A DNA stretch of 64,000 nucleotides from Coriolopsis trogii (lineage: Eukaryota; Basidiomycota; Agaricomycetes; Polyporales; Polyporaceae), in NCBI GenBank assembly GCA_020543525.1, contig JAHYIO010000004.1, positions 2,455,096 through 2,519,095 of the forward strand, written 5' to 3'. The position numbers and the translations under genes were made by a program. Shown piece by piece: positions 48,040 to 64,000 of the stretch. Numbering within the stretch: the first letter of the stretch is position 1; each line of letters starts with the position of its first letter. Below the pieces are notes generated by a model that was not told where the DNA came from, made no database searches, and was given only the letters and a program-made list of their open reading frames with translations.

Positions 48040-48405
48040 TTGGTCTTAGGGTTATGAGAGATTCTGAGGGTCCCTGGGTTGAGATTAGACCCTAGGGTAG
48101 GGTCTTACAACCCTAATTTAGGGTTTAAATAAGACTTTCCCACCCCCGTCCCACGTATGTCACACAGATACTACAGACAGCCATGGGTACCAACTCATGT
48201 AGATTAAAATATCTCACGCAGCATCATATCTACACTCTATAGCAAACAGGCATATATTCTCAACTTATACTGATTTACTATGTCTATATACTCAAATACA
48301 CTAGGTTCATCTATATACTGGACTGGGATTTTATTCTGGTTAGTGAATTGAAATAGCAGTTATAGGCAAACAGCATACGATAAATTCCCCATTGCACTCT
48401 GATCG
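48040..48405. other. AT-rich spacer with telomere-like motifs
   Basis: Contains CTTAGGGTTA (48048), CCCTAGGGTAGGG (48089) and ACCCTAATTTAGGGTTTAAA (48113), short interstitial telomere-like or telo-box motifs, then AT-rich sequence. No coding region. Confidence 0.5.
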
Positions 48406-48543
48406 TGGCCGCTGCTTAAAAGTCCAAGTTTGGCATTCTCAGTATGGCAGAATATCTATACACCAAAGCATGCAACTTGCATGCTTTGGTGTATAGATAT
48501 TCTGTCACTGTGAATGCCAAACTTAGACTTTTAAGCAGCGGCC
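48406..48543. repeat. Near-perfect ~138-bp inverted repeat (foldback)
   Basis: Arms 48406-48475 and 48477-48543 are reverse complements with few mismatches (TGGCCGCTGCTTAAAAGTC at one end, CTTTTAAGCAGCGGCCA at the other), and the centre ...TGCAACTTGCA... leaves almost no loop. It would form a long hairpin as RNA or single-stranded DNA. Confidence 0.88.
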
Positions 48544-48725
48544 ATATCAAATCACACCATTGAAAGGTAACTCATATAGTAATATGGCAGGATTATTGTT
48601 TCTTACTTGTATAGAGTGACATTGTAATCAGTGTGTTCTTATGTCTTAATGCAGCGGTTCTAACACTGTAGTTATCTTATCTGGGACATGGTCGCGCTTA
48701 TCTAGTTGCTCAATCTTATCACGCA

Positions 48726-48936
48726 GAGATCCGGGAGTCCTGGACGCCCTGCGCCGCGGGCCAGCAACCGGGATCCGAGAAATGCGGAACACACAGAGAC
48801 GCGGGAGTCCTGGACGCCCTGTGCCGCGGGCCGGCAACCGGGATCCGAGAAATGCGGAACACACAGAGACGCGGGAGTCCTGGACGCCCTGCACCGCGGG
48901 CCGGCACCCGGGATCCGAGAAATGCGGAACACACAC
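48726..48936. repeat. Three tandem copies of a 70-bp unit
   Basis: Units start at GGGAGTCCTGG 48733, 48803 and 48873, exactly 70 bp apart, nearly identical. Each contains the palindrome half-sites GGAGTCC and GGACGCC and the run GGGATCCGAGAAATGCGG. Confidence 0.92.
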
Positions 48937-49256
48937 CACCGGCGTCCAGGACGCCGCTCATCCCATGCGGATGGGGAGCACAAGCATATGCGAGTGCCTC
49001 ATTAGTGCGTGACGCGTCGGGAGTCCTGGACGCCGCACAATTACATACCACTTATTCGCTCAGTGGTGCCTACAATAGATAGGCAAGGGGCGCAGGACGT
49101 CCAAGACGCCGTTCTTGGCACACAGATATTTTTTTGGCACAGATATACACAGTACAATATACAATACACTTGATATACAAAAATATGTCCGAAACAATGC
49201 GGGGAGAGCGAGATGATACATGCAAAAACAAATACAAAGCAGCGGCTGAGAACACC

Positions 49257-52200
49257 CTACTCAACTATGAAGACTCGAAGGTCGTTGACGAGGAACGCGG
49301 TGCTGGCATCCTCCACCGCATTGCGAACGTTCCTTGCGTCATTGGCCGTCTTCAGCACCTCACCCCACTTCCTTGAACCATAGGGCTGTGCCTCGTTGCT
49401 GCGAATTTTGGAGAGTCACGCGAGGAACCAACCTTCGGCCCAAGGACTCCAGAAACCGACGTTGTATGACGACCGGTTCCAGTAGTGAGGCTGGGGCCAC
49501 CACGACATGTCCGAAGTCTGAGTGTTGCGCCAATCTAGAGAACAATAGAATTAGTACCTGGGCACAAGAAAATAAGAAGGAACACTTACTCGAACAAACT
49601 TTGTACACACCGCAGATGAGAGCTATCTCATCAGCGGTAAGCCTGTCGTCGTACCAGTCGTCCCCTCGGTTCGGGTGGAACGCCTGTCCGTACCGGTAGA
49701 CGTCGACCGAGGGCCCCTCGATTGCCGCCGTGACCACCCCGCCGTAGAGAATCTCCATCGCGATTCGCCACACAATCCCTCCCTGGAGGAGAGCAGCCCG
49801 ACCTTTGGGACCTCGGAGGAGATCGTACACCCGGCTCTCGTAGTGCCGGTAATCATATCCGTTGAGGGACATTGAGTCGGCGCGCCATCCAAGGCTGACT
49901 GGGGGAGCGGGCTGTGTCTTCATGGGAGTCCGGTGATCGGGCTTGAAGATGGTGCGGAAGGGAATACCTCTGAGGACGAGGTATTCCGCGGCGGCTCGGC
50001 AGTTGGTGATGGTGTGGACGCGGAGGAGCCGGACGACAGTCGTGGCGTGGGGGACGATGAGCTCCCAGTCGAGCTGCAGGGCGTCGTCGGCGTGGTAGCG
50101 CAGGTAATACCACGACTCCCTGGAGAGCTCCTGCTTGGTGATTTGAAGCGACGGGTGAATGTACCCGACGCGACGGACGTTCTCCGGGCAGAGTGCGTGG
50201 AGGTCCCATACAGCAGCGGGGAGGACGGGAGGCTTCCGCTTGGTGAACCCGTAGACGAATGCTCGCATACAATCGAGGTATGCGTCGTCGATATCGAACG
50301 CCCCCTCGCCCTCGTCGGCTCGCAGGTATCCAACCACCCGTCGCAGAACCTCAGCAGTAAAGCCGAGTCCCGTCCACTCCTCCGGTGGGTGCTTAACACG
50401 AACCACCCCGAGATGCTGTCGGAGGACATCGCGCACGGGATCAAAGACGGGTTGGAACTTGATATTGTCTGCGTCGTAAAAGACGCTCAAGTTGTTGGCG
50501 AAGGACGATGTGAGGAAATTGGGGATTTCCCCGTCTTCGATGGGTTGAGGGTCGTGCGGGGGATTGAATCGAGGGGCGGTGGGCAGCGCAGTTTGGGACG
50601 AGAAGGGTACGGGCTGAGGCGTTGGGGCAACAACGGGGGCCAGAACCAGGACGGGTGAGGGGACGGGGACGGGGATGGAAGGCGCGAGGGGCGGATATAC
50701 CGTTGGAGCGGGGACAGACGACGACGACGATGGCGCGTTGGCCGTCGGAGGGGCATTACGGGCGGGCTCACGCAGAGGGGCGAAGGTGAGCGTTGGGAAG
50801 TCGTCGTCGTCGTCATCGTCGTCGAGCTCGTCGTCGGGGCACAGCTTGGGACAAATGTCCCACTCATTGTGGAACGAGTCGTACCGCTTCTGGCGCACGG
50901 TGTACTGGTTCCATGTGTCGAGGCGGCCCCGTTTCCCTATGAGCTTCCGATAGTCCTTGTCGAGATACTCCGGGGGAACGTTGGGGTCGACCTCGCCGAC
51001 CTCCACCCACAGGAAGACGAGTATGCTGTGCGGGGGGTAGTTGAAGGCCGCGTGCGCTTGTTCGCGAGCGAGGCGGGCAGCCCGCGCCTCCTCAGACTCA
51101 TTCGCCATGATTGCCTGCGCCCTTGCCTCCCGTCGCGCGAAGAACTCCGAGTATGATTCCCCGGATTGCTGTCCTGGCCCGTGCGGAATCTTGGGTGCGG
51201 CCGGGACTTCAGCCGGAACTTCAGAGGGCGGCGGCGGAGGCGGCTTCCAGCGTGCGAGGCGGTCCCAGCGAAAGAATCGCGGGACTCCGTACATGGGATT
51301 CCGCGCAACCTTGGCGGGGTCGCGGTTGGGTGGCGGGGTTGGAGGAGGGACAGCATGAAAGTCGGGCATGCTGGGACGGAGGGGAGCAAGCCAAGGAAAT
51401 TCCTGGCATGCCGCCTGCCAGTGGTCAGGCTTGGGGAGAAGGAGGTAGATTGGGAGGCCGGCGGCAGCCATGACCGGGAGATGGTCAAGCCAGCGCACGC
51501 GAGCCTCTCCAGGGCCAAGAGCGACGTAAGCGCCGGTGCGGATGCCAGGAGAGAGGTCGGAAATGAATGGATTCTGAAAGGCCGCCAGCCAATTGCTGGA
51601 CATGCCCTTTTTCAAGACGAGAGTGACCCAGTGAGGAGGATAGTGAGACGGGGGAGGAGGGAGGATGGTGTGGAGAGAGAGGGCGATGGCGAGGGTGCAC
51701 CGCGCCGCCAGCACCCCCATCGCATTCCTCGCCCGCGCGGCCGCGATGTATGCCTCGTGTTCGTGCCGGTGGACGTGTTCGTACCCGGCCTGCGCAGGGA
51801 GAGGCCAGAAGGGATCGAGGGGGAACTTGGAGGCAGGCGTGGGCGGGATGGCGGCGAAGAGGGTCTCGCTGAACCACAAGAGACCCCGCTCGACCGTCCG
51901 CCATTATTTGACAATGTCGTCCTTCATGCGGACGCCGTCGGCGAAACGCTCGAACTCCACCCGCTTGAGGTCGACGCCAAGCTGCGCCATCCACCGATTC
52001 TCGCTGTCGAAGGAGCGGACCATGTACGCGAGCTCAGGACAGAGCTTGTTGACCCAGAGAGCCTTGCGCAGGTCGCGTCCGTACACACCCTCGTATGGCG
52101 TCTCGAGGATGAGGCCGGGGAGGGAGTCGACTTCGGACGGGTTGATGACGACGAAATCGGACTTATCCTCCTGGTAGAAGAAGTACTTGCGGGGATAAGT

Positions 52201-52283
52201 GGAGCTGTGAACGTATTAGTATGCGATCGTACGATTGACTGTAATTCGGTTACTTACAGGGAGGACAACGCCATTGGATTCAT
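49257..52283 (-). pseudogene. Large gene of unknown family, disabled by two stop codons
   Basis: Start at 52283, exon 1 to 52258, intron to 52205, then a long exon. After the segment ending MKDDIVK an in-frame TAA lies near 51906. The same frame then stays open for over 2.2 kb (residues such as WFSETLFAAIPPTPASKFP, proline-rich tracts, an eight-Asp run, RVGYIHPSLQITKQELSRES). A GTAAGT intron near 49535-49590 follows, and a last exon with MSWWPQPHYW. An in-frame TGA interrupts this exon near 49425, after which ~50 matching codons continue to TAG at 49257. Each stop differs from a sense codon by one C-to-T or G-to-A change. No known domain recognised. The gene is divergent from the SNF2 gene and has a related C-terminal fragment at 47.8 kb. 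Confidence 0.75.
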
Positions 52284-52445
52284 TGTGAGATGCGCGCGCG
52301 AGAGGGGGTGAGTTGAAGCAGGAGGTTATGCTGTGGGGAAGATAGAATGATGAGAGAGAGCACGCGCACATGCAAATGATGAGCACTTACGGAGCAGGAA
52401 ACCAGGAAGACGAAGATGTAGATATGCGAAGGAGGAACGGGAGGT

Positions 52446-52551
52446 GTGAAGGACAACCCTCACAGAACCCGGAAGAGAGGAGGAGAGTATGTAGTTACGA
52501 GGCGAAGAAACTATGTAGAGAAGCACGGGAGGTGTGAAGGACTACCCTCAC
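52446..52551 (-). promoter_or_regulatory. Pair of 18-bp hairpin motifs upstream of the disabled gene
   Basis: GTGAAGGACAACCCTCAC at 52446-52463 and GTGAAGGACTACCCTCAC at 52534-52551, 88 bp apart. Read on the gene's strand they are GTGAGGGT.GTCCTTCAC, the same orientation as the copies upstream of the SNF2 gene. Confidence 0.85.
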
Positions 52552-53162
52552 AGAACCCGGCAGAGGAGGAGGGGAGAGGGAGGGGTACCGAGAGAGGTCT
52601 TGATTGGAGAGAGTGGTTAGCGCGCCGATGATTTGAGACGGCGCGTCGGCGGGAGGTGTTTACGCGAGGTGGTAAGCGAGATGATGGGTCGAAATTGGGA
52701 GGGTGGGCGAGAGGTAACTGTGTTGCTGGCAGCTGGTGGTGGGTGGTGTGTTGTTGAGCGCAAACGGACGAGCGCGAGAATCGGAGGAAGAGTCGGGAGT
52801 GTCGAGCAGGAGATGGTGGGCCTTGCCCTCCAAAACCTGGGGATGCGGGGTGCGGGAGAGAGTGGCGGTCGCTGGGAGGCGACTGATGTTGGACTTGGCA
52901 ATTCTCGCGCCCTTGTTTGGTCATGTTTGGTAGGTGGCTATGCCGGGAAGTCGGTCTTTTGGCTTTTGCCATGCCGGTGGCTGTGCCAAGAAGATAGCGA
53001 TAATCTTGAGATTAGACTATTAAGAGATAAGATTATTCCGCAGCACGTGAGGAAGATCGTATCTCAGTTCGCCACGTGGGCGGATCGGGACTTCGACTCA
53101 ACATACTGAACGCCTCCGCTCTACCATCTCAACTCGCTTCCCTCCCCCACTCCTGCAGCCTC

Positions 53163-53251
53163 GTGAGGGTCGTCCTTCACGTTCCTGCGTCTGGGCGACT
53201 CTAGGCGACTCTTGGCAACCGTTCTGCAGCCTCGTGAGGGTAGTCCTTCAC
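53163..53251 (+). promoter_or_regulatory. Central pair of 18-bp hairpin motifs
   Basis: GTGAGGGTCGTCCTTCAC at 53163-53180 and GTGAGGGTAGTCCTTCAC at 53234-53251, 71 bp apart, each in the longer context GCAGCCTCGTGAGGG and CACGTTCCTGCGTCT. No gene start directly downstream is certain. Confidence 0.85.
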
Positions 53252-53718
53252 GTTCCTGCGTCTCTGGCGACTTCGACACGACACCTTAGTGACTTCGACA
53301 CAGACTTACCGGCGACTTCGAAACGGACTTACTGGCAACTTCGACACGAGCGCCGCACTAAACCGCCTTTCTCCATTGCCACGCCCGATGTTCCACTCCC
53401 GCAATGACTGCTCTTCTTGCGGGCAGTGAAACATTGGAGTGCAAGCTCGACTTCGCCCGCGACCGCACTCAGCTTGCAACATGCGCAACCTCCTCAAGAT
53501 ATAATTCTCGACTATCTTCACTTCCTCATGGACCCTCAGCAGATCGTCAAGCAACACACCACCGCCCTTATCCGACTCCAAGCACGCCGAATCGCGCCAA
53601 TGCCCCACAAAGCGGCGTCCGAGACTCCGCGCGGCCCACAACGCAGGTCTTCAGCCCGACCCCTCCACCTCTCGCCGCTTCCTATGACTGCTCCATATCG
53701 GTTCCACTCACCGGCTTC

Positions 53719-53736
53719 GTGCGGGTTGTCCTGCAC
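53719..53736 (+). promoter_or_regulatory. Variant hairpin with compensatory stem change
   Basis: GTGCGGGTTGTCCTGCAC. The stem pair that is A-T in all other copies is C-G here, with both sides changed. Confidence 0.75.
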
Positions 53737-54366
53737 GTCCCCGAGATTCCAACTGGCTCTACGTACTGACCCGAGCTCACGATTGTCTCAAGCGGTAAGC
53801 TTTTATGACTATTCAGATAACCTGCCACAACTCGGGCGTCTCGGACGCCGCACGCAGCTGGATGAGCGCATGGACGGGCCTCGGTATGCACCGACTCCCC
53901 CGCTGCGTGCGGCGTCCAGGACGCCCCGATACGTCAGGTCGAGAACCCTCGGACCATAGGGCCGAACCACGATCGACGTCCTGCGTGGTGTGCGGCGTCT
54001 GGGACGCCGCCTTCCCCAACGGGGAACAAATCGTCGCAACGCCTGCCCAATCCCGCGTGCTCGCACACTGAACGTTTCTAGAAAGCGCCACCGATCATAC
54101 GCTGACTGTTTTTCCGTTCCATCTAGTGTCTCTCTTACTAGCTGATGCAGAGCTGTGCCTGTGAGGTGCGAGGTCGCTTAGTGGCCGCGGAGGTGAATAT
54201 CCTCTTATTTCCATCAGCCAAAATCCTTGGACTCACCTCGCGTCACCATGCAGATGATTTTCCGTCATAGCCTGCCGGCTCAAGCCCCACCGAGAGGAGT
54301 ATAAAGAGGTCGGGCCATGACCCTGCGTAGCCCCGCTACTTTCCCCCGCTTTCCACCTGCAGTCTC

Positions 54367-54459
54367 GTGAGGGTAGTCCTTCACGTTTCTGTCGAGCTCA
54401 CCGTCGCCGTCGCCGCTGCACTTCTCCCCGTCTACAGTCTCGTGAGGGTTGTCCTTCAC
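54367..54459 (+). promoter_or_regulatory. Pair of 18-bp hairpin motifs just upstream of the SNF2 gene
   Basis: GTGAGGGTAGTCCTTCAC at 54367-54384 and GTGAGGGTTGTCCTTCAC at 54442-54459, 75 bp apart. The second ends 21 bp before the start codon, so it probably lies in the mRNA leader. Confidence 0.85.
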
Positions 54460-54480
54460 GTTTCTGCTTAATCCGAACGC

Positions 54481-57400
54481 ATGCCTACTCCGCCTGCCGC
54501 CGTCGCGCTTCTCGAGCTTGGTTTTCTCGACAAGCAGCCACTCGTCATTCCGACTCCTTGGAGTTGGAAGGAGTGGCAGCTTTTGACTAGTTTCCCTCAT
54601 GCGCCATGGGCACCCGAGGCAACGCGGGCCACTGTTCGTATCAGCGAGCGCAGGCTGGCGAAGATCAGGGCCTTCGCGCAGAAGTTCTATGCGCTGAACA
54701 GCGAGTCGGCACGTCTCAAGTTCTGGCGCCAGCCTCAGACCCACACTGTAGCCCGCGACACGCTCAGCGATTGGATCCGCTTGCACTGGGGGACTTGGGG
54801 CATCAACAAGATCATCGACAAGTGCCTGGAGGCCCACGGTCGAGGCTTGTACGACGTTGCGACCAAGTCGGGGGAAACGGTACGTCACCTGGAGACTTAC
54901 GATTAGATTGCTCGCACTGACATTGAGTGACGCAGATCATGACGATGGAAGTCAGCAATGCCTCCGTCGCGTTCAATGACATTGCCGCGAGGCTCTTCGG
55001 ACCTGACGCATTCATGTCCGAGAACATGTTGGATCCCGATGTCTACCGCTTCGTCAGCCAGCTCTGCGCGCTCACATGGAACCGATGGCGCAAATCGTTC
55101 GAGGGCTGCCGTCGCCGCGTCAACAACGCGCAGGTCAAGGTGGACGATCTCTACCTCGGTAAGCACCAACCTCTTTCTGATCATGAGTGATAGAAGCTCA
55201 CCCTGCTGCCTAGTCATCACGACATCGGAGAAGCCTCGAGTTGTCGACATTCGTCTATGGATCCAAGCCGTAGGCAGGCTGATTGAACAGCTGAAATACT
55301 TCAAAGATGCCGCCTCCGTCGAGGAGACAGAGCGCTACCGCACCCAAATGGAGGAAATCAAGGCTATTGCTATGCACGGCGACAGTGCTCCCATGGGTCG
55401 TACGTACACCTCGCAGAGCTTTGCGTGAGCTTCCAACGCTAACGATTGTTCAGGTATTCCTGCGTCTTTGAGGCGCGCACTCATTGACATCCCCTCGGAG
55501 GAGGACGTGCAGGCCATCTTGATCGCTGTTGGCGAGGTGATCAACCGCACGAGCCCGGATGAGGATGAGGAACTTCCCGAGGGCGGCATGATGGACTTCA
55601 TGGACTGGAAAGAAGGGACGGAGATGTACTCGCATCTGGATGAGCACGCTATCGACAAACTCTTGGGCATCAACCAAACCAACGGGACGTTCCTCGACTT
55701 CAACGACACGGAGGACCCTGACTGCGCTCATGATCCCTGGTCTGTGGAGGGACGCAAATTCCTCAAGGAAGGATTGGGCGTCCCCCTTCGTTTGAGGTGG
55801 CATCAAAAGGTCGGCATCCTGCGCATCTTCGAGAACAAGTTCGCCCAGAAGAACATGGCGCTCGGAGATGAGGTTGGCGTTGGGAAGACTGGACAGGCGT
55901 TGGCGACGATTGCCGGGTCGGTGCAGTACGAAGCCTTCCACGCGAAGCACGGGAGGTACCCCGGAAAATTCGGTGCGTTACTTCGTTCCGCGCGCAGCAT
56001 ACGTTGATACTTACATATGTTTATTGCAGAGGATTGCAAAAACTTCGGCAGGCTGCAGGGCAAAGCGGGTATGCTACCGCAAATTGTTGCCGTGCCTGCC
56101 AACCTCTTGGAGCAATGGAGGATTGAGATGCACAGGTGGTGGAAGTTCGGCTCCTTCGCGGTCCTACCGTACACTGGTGCCTGCACCACGGCCAACCGAG
56201 GCGCGTTTTGGCAGCAATTCGACGAGCTGAAGTCTCCAATGAACCGGAGAATCATCCTGGCGTCCATTCCGGTACGTACATGCACGATTCTATTAACATA
56301 ACCGGTAGCTGAGCATAGATTAGGCCATCAAAGCCGACGCTGCGTATTTGTTCCTCGATGCATCCGCCAAGAACCCGCACCAGCGCGCGCGCCCTCGGAT
56401 CGACTTGGAGACCGACTCTCTCGCTGCACTCACTCTGTTTGCCCCGGGCCGGGCGTATGACAACCTCATCCTCGACGAGGCTCACATGCTGCGCCTGCCT
56501 AACAAGTTCCACATCGGCGCGAAGGAGCTCCGATACCGTGCGTCATTTGCACTCGCAATGTCTGCGACGCCGGTCATGTCGACGCCCCAGGTACGTTAGG
56601 TAGCTTGCGCGCAGAGTATTAGAATTGACCACCTAACAGGACCTTGTGAACATCGGGTCATTCCTAGGGATCGATGCAATCGAAGTGGAAGCTCACGATC
56701 TTGATGTCCTCCGTCGCAAGACAGAGCTGCTCAAGCGCAAGGATCGGAGCGAACGCAAAGCCGCCGGAGTGGACGCAGGGACCGAGGCTCGCGCATTCGC
56801 GAAAGGCAAGCAGACCAAGAAGTCCAGCGTCGAGACGGAGTACGACCGCTCGCTTAAAGCTTGGATAGACAAGTTGCGGGTGATCTACGAAGGCTTCATC
56901 GTACGTCGGACGGTGAACTCGCTCAATTGGAAGGGCGAACCCATTTCCGGGCTACCACCGTATCATGAGCATCCTCTACTGCTCACGCTGACCGACCACG
57001 AGCGCGTCGTGCTCGACAACCTGGCGGAAGAGGTTGTACAGGAAGGGGGTGGAACGAAGCAAATTGCGGTGAGTGTCTCCTGTCCTCCGGCGTCCGAGAC
57101 TCCCGCCGCACTTCACGAGGTGTCTCGACAGCTGCACCGTGCTGCGTCGAGCAGAGCGGCGTCGTGGACGCCGCACGTTGCGCGCACCCGCCCGCTACGA
57201 CCTCAGTCCGAGATTCACGAGGTGTTTCGACAGCTGCACCGTGCTGCGTGGAGCAGAGCGGCGTCCTGGACGCCGCACGTTGCGCGCACCCGCCCACTAC
57301 GGCCTCAGTCCGAGATTCACGAGCTGTCTCGAGAGCTGCACCGTGCTGCGTCGAGCAGAGCGGCGTCGTGGACGCCGCACGTTACGCCCGCCCGCCCGCT

Positions 57401-60109
57401 GCGACTTCAGTCCGAGATTCACGAGCTGTCTCGATAGCTGCACCGTGCTGCGTAGAGCAGAGCGGCGTCCTGGACGCCGCACGTTGCACGCACGCGCCTG
57501 CTGCGACCTCAGTGCGGCCTTACATGTCCGCCACGTCCCGGGTGTCCTGGACGCTGGGTGTCCTTGCGCGAGAGCTCGAACTGACTCCTCTTAACGCAGG
57601 CGTTCTATCTCGGGCTTCGGATGGGTCTGACCCATTGTGACCTGGCCCTTGGGAAGATATGGGGTCCAACGGAACGCTACTCCGACAACCCCTCCACGAA
57701 AATCAATGCGATTCTGGCGATCCTGCTCCACCACCTCCCGGAAGCTGGCCGGCCTCCTCTGCACGTCTCACCCGATGGCGACAATGTTCTTGTTTCCAAT
57801 CCGCAGTATCTCCCAGGGCCTAATGGGGAACCCCCTGAGGTGCTGCTGTTGCAGAATACGATCGAGTGCCTCGACAACACTGTGATCTTTTCGCAGTTCC
57901 CGACGAACTTCTGGCTCATATCACGCGTATGTTCAATACTTGTCTATTAGGCTAATCACTGATGATTACTTGCAGGCCTTGCGGGAGCTGGGCATCAAGC
58001 ATCTCTTGCTCCATGGGGACATGTCGCTGAGGGAGCGTGCCAAAGCCCTCCAGACATTCAAGAAGGATCCTGAGATCCAGGTTCTGCTTCTGTCGGGGGT
58101 GGGAATGGTCGGGCTCAACATTGCCTTCGCGAACATCCTCATTATCGTCGTGCGTACCTCGCATTACCATTCTTGCTTGCAGATTCTGATTTTATCATAG
58201 GATACGCTCTGGTCCGCTCAAGAGGACGCGCAACTTATCGGACGCGTGTGGCGTTATCCCCAGCCGAAGCCTGTCCATGTATACCGCCTAATTGCCAAAG
58301 ACACTCCCGACGTCTTTTTAAACACCATCTCCTTCGACAAGGCAAAGATTCATCAAGCATTCATGAACTGTTCGGTCCCAATGCGTGCGTCATAATTGTT
58401 TCATAAATCGGGCGATTACTAATATTGACCTCAGAGCGCGCTTTCGATCAATCCAATGGTGAACTCATTGAGGACAGCGACGAGGAAGAGGAGACCGACA
58501 AGGGCAAACAAAAGGCCAGCAGTAGCAAGTCTCGCAACTCAGGCGAGAAGTCCAAAGGCAGCGCCGCAAAGGGCAACAATAAGGAGACATCCAGTACCAA
58601 GGCGAAGGCGAAGGGGAAGGCGAAGGGGAAGGGGAAGGGGAAGGCTAAGCCAAAGAGCCCACCATTGGTAGAGTCAGAGGACGAGGAGCCGCGTACTGAA
58701 GGTGAGTAAGGGCGAACTGTTTTGACGGCGTAGCTGACCCTGTCCAGTTGAGGATGAGGAAACTGTCAAGGATGTCGGGAGGCCTGCGCCGGATGAGAAG
58801 ACTCGCGCCGAGGGAGAGTCTTCTTCCAAGTCCAAGGACAAGCCCGAGCGTAAGGCGAAGCGTCCGATTGTACTCGATTCCGAACCGGAGGGTATGTACT
58901 CTCATCTAGTGTTCAAGCGATGGACTCATGAGCTTCTGTGCTTCAGACAATGACGAAGAGAGCAGCAAGGAGGAAGCGTTGGTGCCGACGAGCAAGACTC
59001 CGCCGCCGCCTCATGCGGGCTCTGCATCAGAGCCCATGCAAGTGGACCCGGTTGACGCGAATGGGGGGACGGTCGAGGATCAAACGTCTGTGCCGGCGTC
59101 CAGGACGCCGCCGCCGCCTTCTCCGCGTTCTGAGCCCATGCAAGTCGACCCGAGGAATGAGAACACGCACCACGGCGCGGCGTCCGAGACGCCTACTCCT
59201 CCCGCCTCGCAAGCTGCCCCTGCGCAGACCTCAATTCCCGTTCCCGAACCCCGTGAGGACACGCGCGAGACAACCACGCAGACCGACGTGGCAAAGCGGG
59301 TCAGTAACGCCCTCTCACAGGAGGGACAGCAGACGGAGGTTACTCCCCGCTCCGGCATTGAGCGGACGTTTCCTCCAGTGCACTTTGCCGACCCGGATTA
59401 CAACGACGAAGAGGCGATGGAAGTTGACAACCCCCAGCATTCTCCGGGTGCCACGCTGCAGCGTCAGCCTCCACGCCGTCGTAGGGTAGCCAGGTTGCCG
59501 CGCGGCGACGAGATCGACCTCTCTCGGGACGACGAGAACCTGCTTGACGAGATCTACCACCAGCTCGACAACAGCGACGTCGGCGACCATGTTCTGGACG
59601 GCAGCGGCGGCCATGGCGATGACACTAGCAGCCTCAGCTCGACCCCCTCCTCGGAGAGTGAGAGTGACAGCGCTCCGCACACCAAGAGGACAACGACGGT
59701 GTCAGACGCTCCCGTTCCCACGAAGCGCAAGGCGAGCACCTTGGACGGGCCCCAGGAAGCCGGGCAGCTGCTCAAGTTTGCTGCAGAGAAGAAGCGCGCC
59801 AGAGCTGCTGCCCGGGCACTCGAGGATTTGCAGGGAGATAGTGATGGCAAGGCGTCGGGCAGTGGGCAGGTTGGGCTTGAGCCAGACTTGCCGAACGCTT
59901 CGTCTTCGAAGGGGGGTCCTCGCTCGAAGGTTGGGAAGAAACAACCCAAGGCTCAGACGGCGCAGCGTCGTCCGGTTCAGAACCAAGCCGCGGAGATGGG
60001 CTTGGAGGTAACCCCTGTTCGTGCACCTACCGGTGGATTGGACCACCTCCCGCCCTCCCTTCGTGGTGCATCTGCTCGTGGCACGCGCTCCCACGTCAAA
60101 CGTACCTAG
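54481..60109 (+). CDS. SNF2-family ATPase, subtelomeric
   Basis: Thirteen exons (54481-54879, 54936-55158, 55214-55399, 55454-55972, 56030-56271, 56324-56590, 56640-57068, 57600-57926, 57976-58149, 58201-58384, 58435-58701, 58748-58891, 58947-60109) give ~1507 residues. Helicase motifs are in order: I GDEVGVGKTGQ (~407), Ia VPANLLEQW, II LILDEAH (~574), III SATPVMSTPQDL (~604), V SGVGMVGLNIA, VI QLIGRVWRYPQPKPV (~932). This is the SNF2/Rad5-like order, predicting DNA translocation. The N-terminal ~270 residues are not recognised. The C-terminal ~500 are low-complexity with a Lys-Gly/Ala run (58599-58650), acidic Ser stretches and Pro-rich repeats. Catalytic motifs look intact. The seventh intron (57069-57599, 531 bp) holds a minisatellite. 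The third donor may be 3 bp earlier. Related multicopy genes near chromosome ends suggest a telomere-linked helicase; that role is inference. Confidence 0.88.
57114..57520 (+). repeat. Four-copy 102-bp minisatellite inside an SNF2 intron
   Basis: Landmark CTGCACCGTGCTGCG starts at 57132, 57234, 57336 and 57438, exactly 102 bp apart. Each unit carries GAGCGGCGTC.TGGACGCCGC. The unit is 34 codons and the exon-7 frame stays open through three copies until a TAG in the fourth. Confidence 0.9.
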
Positions 60110-60430
60110 TTGTATAATTCTCGCATGTATCGCACGCATATCCAATGAATCTGAATGTCCGCTTCACACAACAGTAAGGCGTGTTTTCATGGAGTCCTCG
60201 ACGCCGTCCGGCCCTGCCGGCATGTTGATATAAGTACACTCACTGGGCAATTAGTGTTTGGAGAGTGGGCACTATCCCCGGAGAGGTGAGGGCGTATGTG
60301 TCATATAAGGTAAGGTGTTCATTGTGCGCATTAGCATGAAGTGCAGTGGAAGGAATCCAGCAACGGTTGTGCATAGGTCCGCACAGAAGCTCGGTCTTGT
60401 GGTTTGATATACACACACCCCGTGCAACGG
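60110..60430. other. 3' flank of the SNF2 gene
   Basis: 320 bases with one loose palindrome (GGAGTCCTCGACGCC at 60191). No gene. Confidence 0.5.
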
Positions 60431-61325
60431 GAGTCCTGGACGCCTGTGTCGTGCGCGGCGCTGCGTGACCGCAGTCTCTACATGCCCACACACCGCACGT
60501 AGCGCGACGGGAGTCCTGGACTCCCGTGTTGTGCGCTGTGGGGCGAACACTTAGTCTCATTGTTTGATCCATACACTGCACGTAGCGCGACGGGAGTTCT
60601 GGACTCCCGTGTCAAGCGCTGTTGCGCAAAAGCTTGGTCTGATTGTTTGATCCACACACTCCCGGCGCGACGGCAGTCCTGGACGCCCGTGTCGTGTGTG
60701 GGGGTGCAAAAGCTTGCTCATTGTGCGGATACACACACACAGCCCGACGGAGTCCTGGACGCCCGTGTCGTGCGCGGCGCTGCGTGACCGCAGTCTCTAC
60801 ATGCCCACAGCCCGCACGTAGCGCGACGGGAGTCCTGGACGCCCGTGTCGTGCGCCGCGCTGGGTGACCGCAGTCTCTACATGCCCACAGACCGCACGTA
60901 GCGCGAGGGGAGTCCAGGACTCCCGTGTCGTGCGCTGTTGTGCAAAAGCTTGGTCTGATTGTTTGATCCACACACTCCCGGCACGACGGCAGTCCTGGAC
61001 GCCCGTGTCATGTGTGGGGGTGCAAAAGCTTGCTCATTATGCGGATACACACACACAGCCCAACGGAGTCCAGGACGCCCGTGTCGTGCGCTGCGGTGCG
61101 AAAGCTTGGTCTCATTGCTTGATCCACACACTCCCGGCACAACGGGAGTCCAGGACTCCCAATACCCATCCTACAGTATGGTAGCTTGGTCTCCGACTTG
61201 ATATACAGGGCTCCCAGTGCCATGGGAGTCCAGGACTCCTGTAACAGATTTTGTCATGCAAACACTTGGTTGTGTTGTTGATCCACATACACACAGTGCG
61301 AGAGGAGTCCAGGACTCCCATACAT
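60425..61325. repeat. 80-bp satellite with palindromic core, 12 units
   Basis: Core GTCC(T/A)GGAC or one-base variant at 60433, 60513, 60596, 60676, 60752, 60832, 60912, 60992, 61068, 61148, 61228 and 61307, spaced 76-83 bp. Flanks extend the dyad: the second copy is a perfect palindrome with 10-bp arms ACGGGAGTCC. Unit types repeat in order (60676 with 60992, 60752 with 61068), a 316-bp higher-order period. Confidence 0.93.
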
Positions 61326-61627: not shown

Positions 61628-63940
61628 ATGGAATATCCTGATGAATATTGTCGCCCTCTCCAGCTTAGCCTTGCTGATCTCATTGATCAGGCCAAAGACT
61701 ATCTCAATGAGGGTACTCCAGCAGCTGTGGATCGCTTTATGCGACTCATGCTTGCTGGTCGTGCTACTGTCAATGGCGAGAAGCGGCGTGTCTTTGTTAA
61801 CCCTATGGATGGGGTCTCTTACCCTCCTCAGGGAAGCTATACTCTTACTGGCGACTTTGACTCTCTGTTGGGCTTCTGTTACACTCTCCCTCTCAAAGTC
61901 CCCTTGGCTATATATCCGGTCCCCTCCTTTGCTCATACTCTTACCAAGTCCATCCATGTGAAGGTCCCTATAACTATCAATGGGGTGAGTGTGTATTGTA
62001 AAGGAGCTGGACTATTTTGACAACAAAAAATAGGCAGTGCACCGTATCCCTCCTCATAAGATTCCCAATATCTGTATTGGACGCTTTGGAGTCCGTCATC
62101 AAGTTCGCATTTTCTTCCCTCAGCTCTATAGAGAGGGCATGCCTTCAAAAATAGAGCAAGCCGACATTGCTCTCATTTACAATCAGGCCATTCTGGAAGC
62201 AGTTCGTGAAATCATGCCTCATAGCCTTGCACATTGGCCACCCTCCTATGAGGTTGCCCTCACAGCATCCAAGGACGCTCGTGGCGGCATGCATTTCCAG
62301 TCTGTGGATGTACCAGAGGAACATCTTCATCGTTTTGCCGAATATGTTCTCAGGGAGCTAGCAACATTCCCTCGTTTTGCTGGGGCTATGTTTCAGATCG
62401 AGATCCGTGGTACCAAGGGCGCCTTCAGTTTCCCCTTCCATAACACCCCTGCTCGCAACTATGCTTTCAACCTCTTCATTGAATCTCTGGACAATGCCAC
62501 TATGGGATCTCGGGATAACTGGTGTGTCGACATAGGCCTGGAGATTCATCATCCTGGCCACTGCGTACAGTGGCTTGATGCAGCCCATGAGCGCTTGCTA
62601 CACCATGCTCTTCCCTCTCTCCTCAATCCAGCCATCGCCACCCTTGCCAAATCATCCATGTTCCATAAAGATGTCAGCGGACATCTGTTTGACCTTGCTG
62701 GGTTCCGTGTGGAACCTGGAGTTAAGGGCACTCCAGACAAGGTGGCATATGTCAATGTCTATACCACAGACAAGGCTATCACCTACCAACTTCATCGAGG
62801 CATTTACCGCCAGCGCCGTGCGGACGAGCTCTTCCCTGGTCCCCTCCCCAAACTCTGCAACGACCTCCTCTCCATATCTGAAACCTTTGCTGTATGTGCT
62901 GGTTCAGAAGGAACAACTCAAGATGGCACTGCTCGTTATGAGATCCGGGTGAAGTTGTCTAAAGTGCACCGGACACTTAGGACCTTCCCTGTTGAGCTTA
63001 TTCAGCAGTCAGTAGTTTCAATTCCCAACGACATTTGGTGGTACGTGTTTATTAGTTACTTATAAGTATGATACTAATTTATCATAGGACATTCAAATAT
63101 TATCGCATCGCTGCCATCTCCTATGTTTTCAATGAGTTTCTCAATGATCCACCCAACTCTAGAGCCACCCTCCCCTCCCTCACACTTGGTGCTGCATGCA
63201 TCTTCATGCTTAATGCTGTGATGTCACGCCCTAGTGACTGGCGAGCTGAGGTTGCCTTGCAGAACACGGTTTGCATCCACATGCCTGAGGGCGTGAACCT
63301 TCACGATGAAGACTTGGATGACATGGAGTTCGATGAGGATGAGATTGTCCCTGCTCCCACTGAGCAAGGGTTATTTTATCTCTCCGATCTGATCAGAGAT
63401 GGACGTCACCACTGGCTGCGCATTCCTCGGTCCCGTGTCCTAGAGATCCCTCAACTCTGCATCCTCTACAAGGCATCCTCCATAAGCGACATCGAGACCC
63501 GTCTTGGAGCCACAGGTATCACCTACACTCGCCGCTCTGCCAATCCAGCACGGATATCCAACCGCCGTGCTCACACACTCAGCATCAAATATGCCAATCC
63601 TGATGCAATCACTCCTTCTGTCTTTGGGTTGGACGATCTTGGTATCCGGCTACACAATCGTCTTCGGCTCACAGGTCCTGATCAAGTCAACTATAATTCG
63701 GATGATTCGGATGAGGAGCCTCAGGATGTTCAGGGTCTCTTGCCAGATGCTGTTGTGGACCGGATCTGGGCCCAATTCCCTTACGACCTGATACAGGTCT
63801 CTCCCAACCTCAAGGACCGATACAAGCCTGCCTATTGCACTCTCTCCCCTGCGGATCAGTCCCGTGTTACCCTTGATCTCTTTACCCGGCCAGCCTTTCC
63901 ATTTCGCAATGTGTGGTGGCGAATCCGTGACGAGGACTTC
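61628..63940 (+). CDS. Terminal gene of unknown family, cut by the telomere
   Basis: Exons 61628-61984, 62034-63040 and 63088 onward give ~740 residues before the telomere repeats. Landmarks: MEYPDEYCRPLQLSLADLI at the start, DRFMRLMLAGRATVNGEKRR, IPPHKIPNICIGRFGVRHQVR, a His-rich stretch LEIHHPGHCVQWLDAAHE, and an acidic segment near 63310-63360. No known catalytic motif was recognised. Splice sites are good and the frame is clean, with codon use less GC-rich than in the arm genes. The frame passes without a stop from ...WWRIRDEDF into TTAGGG repeats (Leu-Gly), so the real C-terminus has been lost or lies beyond an assembly break. Confidence 0.75.
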
Positions 63941-64000
63941 TTAGGGTTAGGGTTAGGGTTAGGGTTAGGGTTAGGGTTAGGGTTAGGGTTAGGGTTAGGG
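63941..64000 (+). repeat. Telomere repeats (TTAGGG)10
   Basis: Ten perfect TTAGGG units to the last base, G-rich strand running 5' to 3' toward the end, as at a right chromosome end. Confidence 0.98.

What the first reader, a model, noticed from the sequence alone, without database searches (positions are those of the whole stretch)
52446..54459. An 18-bp hairpin, GTGAGGGTNGTCCTTCAC, repeated as pairs upstream of two divergent genes, with covariation
Six near-identical copies and one variant occur in 2 kb (52446, 52534, 53163, 53234, 53719, 54367, 54442). They come in pairs 71-88 bp apart and keep the same orientation relative to each flanking gene. The stem always has a G-T pair at one position, and the variant at 53719 swaps A-T for C-G on both sides. 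A retained G-T and a compensatory change point to a structured RNA leader or a dyad-binding factor that co-regulates the two genes.
Basis: partly seen in the sequence, partly recalled or inferred. Interest (0 to 1): 0.75.

Follow-up and report, generated by a model that had tools for sequence, protein, structure and literature searches.

The report
Paired RNA hairpins beside fungal telomeres
Near chromosome ends of a mushroom-type fungus, genes of a repeated element begin with small paired hairpins, and different versions of the element carry different hairpins of similar design, which suggests a regulatory tag read by a matching partner molecule.

Summary
In detail: seven copies at the stated places, 0.25 expected. 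The real unit is a 34-nt hairpin: outer 4-bp stem, 3x3 internal loop, 8-bp stem with an invariant G·U, UNGU loop. In 18 distinct copies 97.7% of pair cells pair and 6 of 12 pairs change on both sides; the gene-sense strand folds better in 18 of 18. All 71 zero-mismatch matches to the open-stem pattern lie in a repeated element near contig ends. The element holds unknown gene 1, a divergent SNF2-type helicase gene 2, and gene 3 with polypore relatives. Hairpin pairs lie between TATA and ATG in three leaders. Between lineages A and B the loop-closing pair switches G-C to A-U in 6 of 6 matched hairpins, almost the only change there. Lineage C has a different hairpin (loop CUAUA), also covarying, at the same gene positions. 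Best reading: structured RNA leaders read by a lineage-matched factor. Transcription, factor and regulation are not shown; a DNA dyad operator is the main rival. No Rfam family fits.

The parts
52438..52471 (-). hairpin, gene 1 leader, proximal to gene 1
52526..52559 (-). hairpin, gene 1 leader, distal
53155..53188 (+). hairpin, distal set on the gene 2 side
53226..53259 (+). hairpin, distal set on the gene 2 side
53711..53744 (+). variant hairpin (C-G at pair 4-15); no counterpart in lineage B
54300..54305 (+). TATAAA upstream of gene 2
54359..54392 (+). hairpin 1 of the gene 2 leader
54434..54467 (+). hairpin 2 of the gene 2 leader, 13 nt before the ATG
52560..53154 (.). region between the two hairpin sets, partly conserved A to B; presumed two-way promoter (no TATA-like site found on either strand)
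   Evidence: function inferred
49363..52283 (-). gene 1, unknown family; ATG at 52283, main open frame 51879-49363; window copy has an in-frame stop near 51906
54481..60109 (+). gene 2, SNF2-type helicase, 13 predicted exons
61628..63940 (+). gene 3, family with polypore relatives, cut by the telomere; no hairpin in its leader here
63941..64000 (+). telomere repeat (TTAGGG)10
48043..48062 (+). centromere-side end of the element, beginning at a partial telomere repeat

Best explanation
The copies are structured RNA elements in the 5' leaders of genes of a subtelomeric element in a polypore-like fungus. Shown by sequence: each is a 34-nt hairpin kept by compensatory changes, sense-oriented to the adjacent gene, exact matches confined to the element, and in a diverged lineage C a different covarying hairpin sits at the same gene positions. 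Inferred: the leaders are transcribed; a trans-acting RNA-binding factor, most simply one encoded by the element, binds the tandem hairpins and sets translation or fate of the element's mRNAs, as a translational operator would; and factor and hairpins change together in each lineage, which would explain why the loop-closing pair differs (G-C in A, A-U in B) in every matched hairpin.
For: Six of 12 pairs with two-sided changes and 97.7% of cells paired, against 35-64% for slid partners; the same fold predicted unaided. Invariant G·U; gene-sense strand more stable in 18 of 18 AB and 11 of 11 C hairpins. Placement between TATA and ATG in A gene 2, B gene 2 and B gene 3, with TATA-to-hairpin distances 59, 61 and 65 bp. 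Six of 6 matched A/B hairpins differ on both sides of the loop-closing pair, 12 of 19 differences in 204 positions, while aligned leader outside hairpins is 482/731 and 57/118 identical. Lineage C hairpin at the same gene positions.
Against: No transcript data. No RNA-binding domain recognised in the frames scanned of genes 1-3. In one search, 22 of 500 shuffles reach the number of pairs with two-sided change and 413 of 500 the number of further pair types, 27 and 38 of 500. One B copy type has an uncompensated U-U mismatch; 4 of 18 lack the outermost pair. The distal copies (53163, 53234, 53719) lie 0.76-1.32 kb upstream of the gene 2 ATG and may not be in its mRNA; no TATA-like site was found in the central region. 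A-lineage gene 3 and two gene 1 paralogue upstream regions (L048, L049) lack such hairpins.
Confidence: 0.5

Rival explanations
1. The sites are double-stranded DNA operators: an imperfect palindrome bound by a homodimeric transcription factor that co-regulates the divergent genes.
For: Dyad symmetry; position around a presumed two-way promoter; a symmetric switch of both half-sites is also what a changed DNA-binding dimer would leave.
Against: The outer stem is CGGG/CCCG, GCAG/CTGC or TAGG/CCTA: complementarity is kept, half-site sequence is not. The G·U asymmetry is invariant and flips strand with the gene; the sense strand folds better in 29 of 29. Pairs also lie downstream of TATA boxes.
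Confidence: 0.2
2. The hairpins are RNA tags for something other than translation: localisation, packaging or targeting of the element's mRNA, for instance to chromosome ends.
For: Same RNA evidence as the best reading; found in leaders of more than one gene of the same element; the element sits at chromosome ends.
Against: No reverse transcriptase or packaging protein was recognised in the frames scanned. Tags of this kind need not lie just before the start codon.
Confidence: 0.14
3. The hairpins act as single-stranded DNA or cruciforms in joining, copying or moving the element.
For: The element looks mobile: 20 copies of its end, each behind a partial telomere repeat. Strand-specific pairing is also expected of single-stranded DNA hairpins.
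Against: The hairpins lie in the middle of the element, not at its end, and their strand follows the gene direction.
Confidence: 0.1
4. No function: homogenised repeats or a remnant peptide repeat, spread by subtelomeric recombination.
For: Copies across loci are about 99% alike within a lineage. Read as GTG AGG GTN GTC CTT CAC the 53719 changes are synonymous.
Against: Flanks and the loop base stay class-specific while the loop-closing pair differs between lineages. Hairpins are 126/136 and 59/67 identical where the surrounding leader is 482/731 and 57/118. Spacings such as 71, 88, 62, 85 and 70 are not multiples of 3, and the frame of the 54442 copy stops after 9 codons counting the motif's own. 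A peptide does not explain the outer stem.
Confidence: 0.06

Closest known systems
Iron-responsive element with its binding protein (recalled, not looked up)
   Same: A small stem-loop in a 5' leader near the presumed cap
   Different: Different loop and shape, tandem copies, confined to a subtelomeric element; no binding protein known
Phage MS2 coat-protein operator hairpin (recalled, not looked up)
   Same: Small hairpin just before a start codon, read by a protein of the same element (here only supposed)
   Different: Eukaryotic element, paired hairpins in several leaders, lineage-specific versions; reader unknown
Subtelomeric RecQ-like helicase genes of fungi (passages of PMC7473861 and PMC10817607)
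   Same: Helicase genes repeated near telomeres of mushrooms
   Different: Here the helicase matches SNF2-type domains and pairs with a divergent gene; those passages do not mention leader hairpins
MoTeR telomeric retrotransposons of Magnaporthe (start of abstract of PMC7367193 in listing)
   Same: Mobile sequence at chromosome ends in a fungus
   Different: No reverse transcriptase recognised here; not tested exhaustively

Membership tests
Structured RNA leader (general kind) | Pairing kept by compensatory change | tested here: met
   shuffles on two of five measures are less favourable (22 and 413 of 500; 27 and 38 of 500)
Structured RNA leader (general kind) | Lies in transcribed 5' leader | tested here: inconclusive
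   Between TATA and ATG in three leaders; no transcript data
Any Rfam family | Covariance-model match | tested here: not met
   two weak matches (E 1.2 and 3.1), neither on a hairpin; none at E up to 1 for lineage C
Iron-responsive element / MS2-type operator (works like) | Bound by a dedicated RNA-binding protein that controls translation | not testable with these tools
   Needs binding and reporter experiments
Homodimer DNA operator | Half-site sequence conserved between copies | tested here: not met
   Inner 7 bp conserved within a lineage, outer stem differs between classes but stays complementary
Subtelomeric RecQ-like helicase genes | RecQ-type helicase | tested here: not met
   Pfam SNF2-rel_dom and Helicase_C; no RecQ family at E up to 0.1; closest PDB sequences are ERCC-6 and other SNF2-type proteins
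Subtelomeric RecQ-like helicase genes | Repeated near telomeres | tested here: met
Kyakuja-Dileera-Zisupton transposons | KDZ transposase and terminal repeats | not tested
   Considered from recall; one paper search listed, none read

The most novel reading that the evidence does not exclude
Families of a chromosome-end fungal element each carry a private RNA hairpin in the leaders of their genes, read by a co-diverging factor of the same family: a lineage-specific RNA lock and key that lets sister elements, such as the A and B copies side by side on C27, control themselves without cross-talk.
Probability: 0.3. Interest if true: 0.8.

Novelty: new variant of a known kind. Interest (0 to 1): 0.62.

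Why it matters
Diverged lineages of one chromosome-end element keep the hairpin's place and general shape while changing its sequence, and one base pair differs in every matched hairpin of two lineages. That predicts a matched reader molecule and tells an experimenter which base pair to swap to test it. No family of this shape is in Rfam release 15. If true it would be a directly testable case of an RNA signal and its reader diverging together in repeated chromosome-end DNA.

Tried and rejected
Rejected or disfavoured: (1) Coding repeat: the core reads VRVVLH and the 53719 changes would be synonymous, but copy spacings are not all multiples of three and stops follow. (2) Known RNA family: no credible match. 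(3) Viral relatives of the motif: 16 single hits in viral contigs, which I judge near chance for a pattern of that length; no control was run and none was followed up. (4) Gene conversion as sole cause of the A/B difference: disfavoured by class-specific flanks and a retained loop base.

Led nowhere: gene 1 homologues (one hit, P0001, in both of which only about 8000 candidates were scored); gene 1 structure (mean pLDDT 36.5, not searched); fold search of the gene 3 exon (no PDB match at E <= 0.001); PDB profile search with gene 1 (0 hits at E up to 1); seven answered paper searches, whose listings showed nothing on this element or hairpin; of the listed papers I saw passages of two and only listings of the rest, and the library lacks most subscription papers. 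Type E arrays (about 12 tandem 72-bp units with a GUCUGAC-AGU-GUCGGAC hairpin upstream of a distant helicase paralogue) look analogous, but that palindrome also occurs in arrays elsewhere and in both orientations, so they carry no weight in the claim.

Rows dropped: alignment A1 used 18 of the 20 distinct 48-nt windows; left out were a near-duplicate from C32/C33 and the C32/C33 copy whose 3' outer stem is lost at a rearrangement, which would count as unpaired. One broken copy on C35 was not caught by the pattern. The A/B comparison uses six position-matched hairpins; 53719 in A, the third gene 1 copy, the third distal copy and the gene 3 pair in B have no partner. Alignment A2 holds only copies with the exact string GGCTATACT from L045, L046 and L050, so its invariant loop and G·U are by selection; copies with loop CTACA were left out. 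Upstream regions of C6, C31 and the far end of C30 were not fetched.

Full report
WHAT WAS CHECKED. The window is G000:C4:2455096-2519095 of an unnamed 38.8 Mb genome in 39 contigs and ends in (TTAGGG)n at 63941-64000. Start-to-start spacings within pairs are 88, 71 and 75 bp.

THE REAL UNIT. The flanks of the 18-mer also pair. Folding gives a 34-nt hairpin: 4-bp outer stem, 3x3 pyrimidine internal loop, 8-bp stem with one G·U, and a UNGU loop. Copies were collected from ten stretches of nine contigs besides the window's; 18 of 20 distinct windows were aligned. Of 216 pair cells 97.7% are standard pairs, against 35-64% when partners are slid by 1 to 3 columns. Of 500 column shuffles none reaches the percentage paired or the covariation score, 22 reach the number of two-sided pairs and 413 the number of further pair types. 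RNAalifold predicts the same fold unaided. Four of 18 copies lack the outermost pair and one has a U-U mismatch. The G·U never changes (18 of 18). The opposite strand folds less well in 18 of 18, by 4.8 kcal/mol on average.

WHERE IT OCCURS. With up to two mismatches 63 of 69 genome matches lie in copies of one element near contig ends and 6 elsewhere (control 7); the 18 exact matches lie in three copies on C4, C27 and C39. With the varying stem positions left open, 71 of 71 zero-mismatch matches lie in the element, within about 33 kb of a contig end. At one mismatch that call counts 151 against 70 for the reversed-pattern control and its list is cut, so only the zero-mismatch class is informative. 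I call A the copies with G-C at the loop-closing pair (C4, C27, C39) and B those with A-T (C2, C5, C27, C28, C32, C33, C34, C35; several are truncated).

THE ELEMENT. Three genes were outlined by comparing A with B and by predicted splice sites. Gene 1 runs leftward from an ATG at 52283; its main frame has no Pfam match and one database homologue, and the window copy has an in-frame stop that the C27 and C39 copies lack. Gene 2 runs rightward from 54481 and carries SNF2-type domains. Gene 3 starts at 61628 and is cut by the telomere; 9 of its 30 homologues bear an organism name, from Trametes, Cerioporus, Pilatotrama, Cubamyces and Dichomitus, so the host is probably a polypore (inference).

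PLACE RELATIVE TO GENES. In A the proximal pair of gene 2 lies between TATAAA (54300) and the ATG (54481). In B the same holds for gene 2 and for gene 3. TATA-to-hairpin distances are 59, 61 and 65 bp. The gene 1 hairpins lie upstream of what looks by eye like a 5'UTR intron. The plus-strand distal copies lie 0.76-1.32 kb before the gene 2 ATG; whether they belong to a spliced leader is open, and no TATA-like site was found between the two sets.

THE A/B DIFFERENCE. Six hairpins can be matched by position (alignment). Inside them 185 of 204 positions are identical. Of the 19 differences, 12 are the two sides of the loop-closing pair (6 of 6 hairpins), 3 the free loop base, 3 the outermost pair and 1 a G-C to G-U. 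Outside hairpins the aligned leaders are 482/731 and 57/118 identical. The flanks keep their class, and the loop base C of the first distal hairpin is kept in both lineages between the two changed positions. I read this as repeated point change under a shared demand, not copying. Copies within a cluster may be duplicates, so at least three events are implied, not necessarily six.

A THIRD LINEAGE. Gene 1 and gene 2 searches found distant paralogues near other contig ends. The divergent region of two of them (L045, L046) has no convincing match to the AB model (best E 1.4 there) but carries its own repeated hairpin, GTGTGCGG-CTATA-CTGCGCAC. In L045 seven copies are sense to gene 1 and six sense to gene 2, with one more of loop CUACA; spacings are 55-79 bp on the gene 1 side, where four of six are 71-72. 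Two copies precede the gene 2 ATG, and the gene 1 set precedes a like-placed presumed 5'UTR intron (by eye). In 11 distinct copies every pair cell pairs, 3 of 9 pairs have two-sided changes (27 of 500 shuffles reach that number), and 11 of 11 fold better on the sense strand. Genome-wide 61 of 61 zero-mismatch matches lie in six such places and 6 of 7 one-mismatch matches do (control 4). AB and C share a G·U followed by G-C near the loop, but the C copies were picked on a string containing it, so the likeness is only suggestive.

NEGATIVES. A-lineage gene 3, the type D gene 1 paralogue (L049) and the C28:37959 gene 1 paralogue (L048) show no such array upstream. No Rfam family fits. No RNA-binding domain was recognised in the frames scanned.

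READING. A structured RNA is well supported by sequence (my estimate about 0.85). That it acts as an operator read by a lineage-matched factor is the best account of placement plus the lineage-wide difference (0.5 overall). A DNA dyad operator is the main rival: it explains the symmetric change but not the outer-stem covariation or the strand rule. Likeness to the iron-responsive element and the MS2 operator is from recall and concerns how it might work, not membership. Seven answered paper searches listed nothing on this element; passages seen in PMC7473861 and PMC10817607 concern RecQ-type subtelomeric helicases.

MOBILITY, IN PASSING. The element's end GGGTTATGAGAG... is preceded by zero to three letters of a telomere repeat and then by flanks that mostly differ; 20 exact ends exist in the genome, one next to a lineage C copy on C30. 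The first 808 bp are 97% identical between A and B, against 66-78% in most other aligned pieces.

Noticed in passing
window 48734-61318: A second dyad, GGMGTC-NNN-GACKCC, fills the non-conserved parts of the element: 22 matches in the window against 0.04 expected, 21 inside the element; a looser form gives 27 inside and 1 in the other 48 kb, and 20 in the B copy on C34. Exact GGCGTCCAGGACGCC occurs 14 times in the genome, 13 of them on C4, C8, C27 and C39 near contig ends. It shows no strand preference.
   Followed up: partly
window 48043-48062; L054-L062; joints on C2, C5, C27, C28, C32-C35, C39: The element's centromere-side end starts with a partial telomere repeat joined to flanks that mostly differ, 20 exact ends in the genome, as if it joins broken or telomeric ends.
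   Followed up: partly
window 48046-48850 versus C34 copy: The first 808 bp of the element are 97% identical between lineages A and B although most other aligned pieces are 66-78% identical.
   Followed up: no
C28:8450-11450 (L047); arrays on C6, C28, C34, C35: A distant helicase paralogue is preceded by about 12 tandem 72-bp units each with a GUCUGAC-AGU-GUCGGAC hairpin; the same palindrome occurs in arrays elsewhere.
   Followed up: partly
window about 51906: Gene 1 of the window copy carries an in-frame stop; the C27 and C39 copies are open there.
   Followed up: no
window 61628-63940: Gene 3 is cut by the telomere; its family has 30 database homologues, the 9 with organism names all from polypores, and no PDB fold match.
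   Followed up: partly
window 57112-57513: A predicted intron of gene 2 is filled by a 102-bp tandem repeat, 3.9 copies.
   Followed up: no
C2:1-170, C32 and C33:1-1400: Element truncations close to telomeres share one sequence joined at different points of the leader, in C32/C33 inside a hairpin's 3' flank.
   Followed up: no
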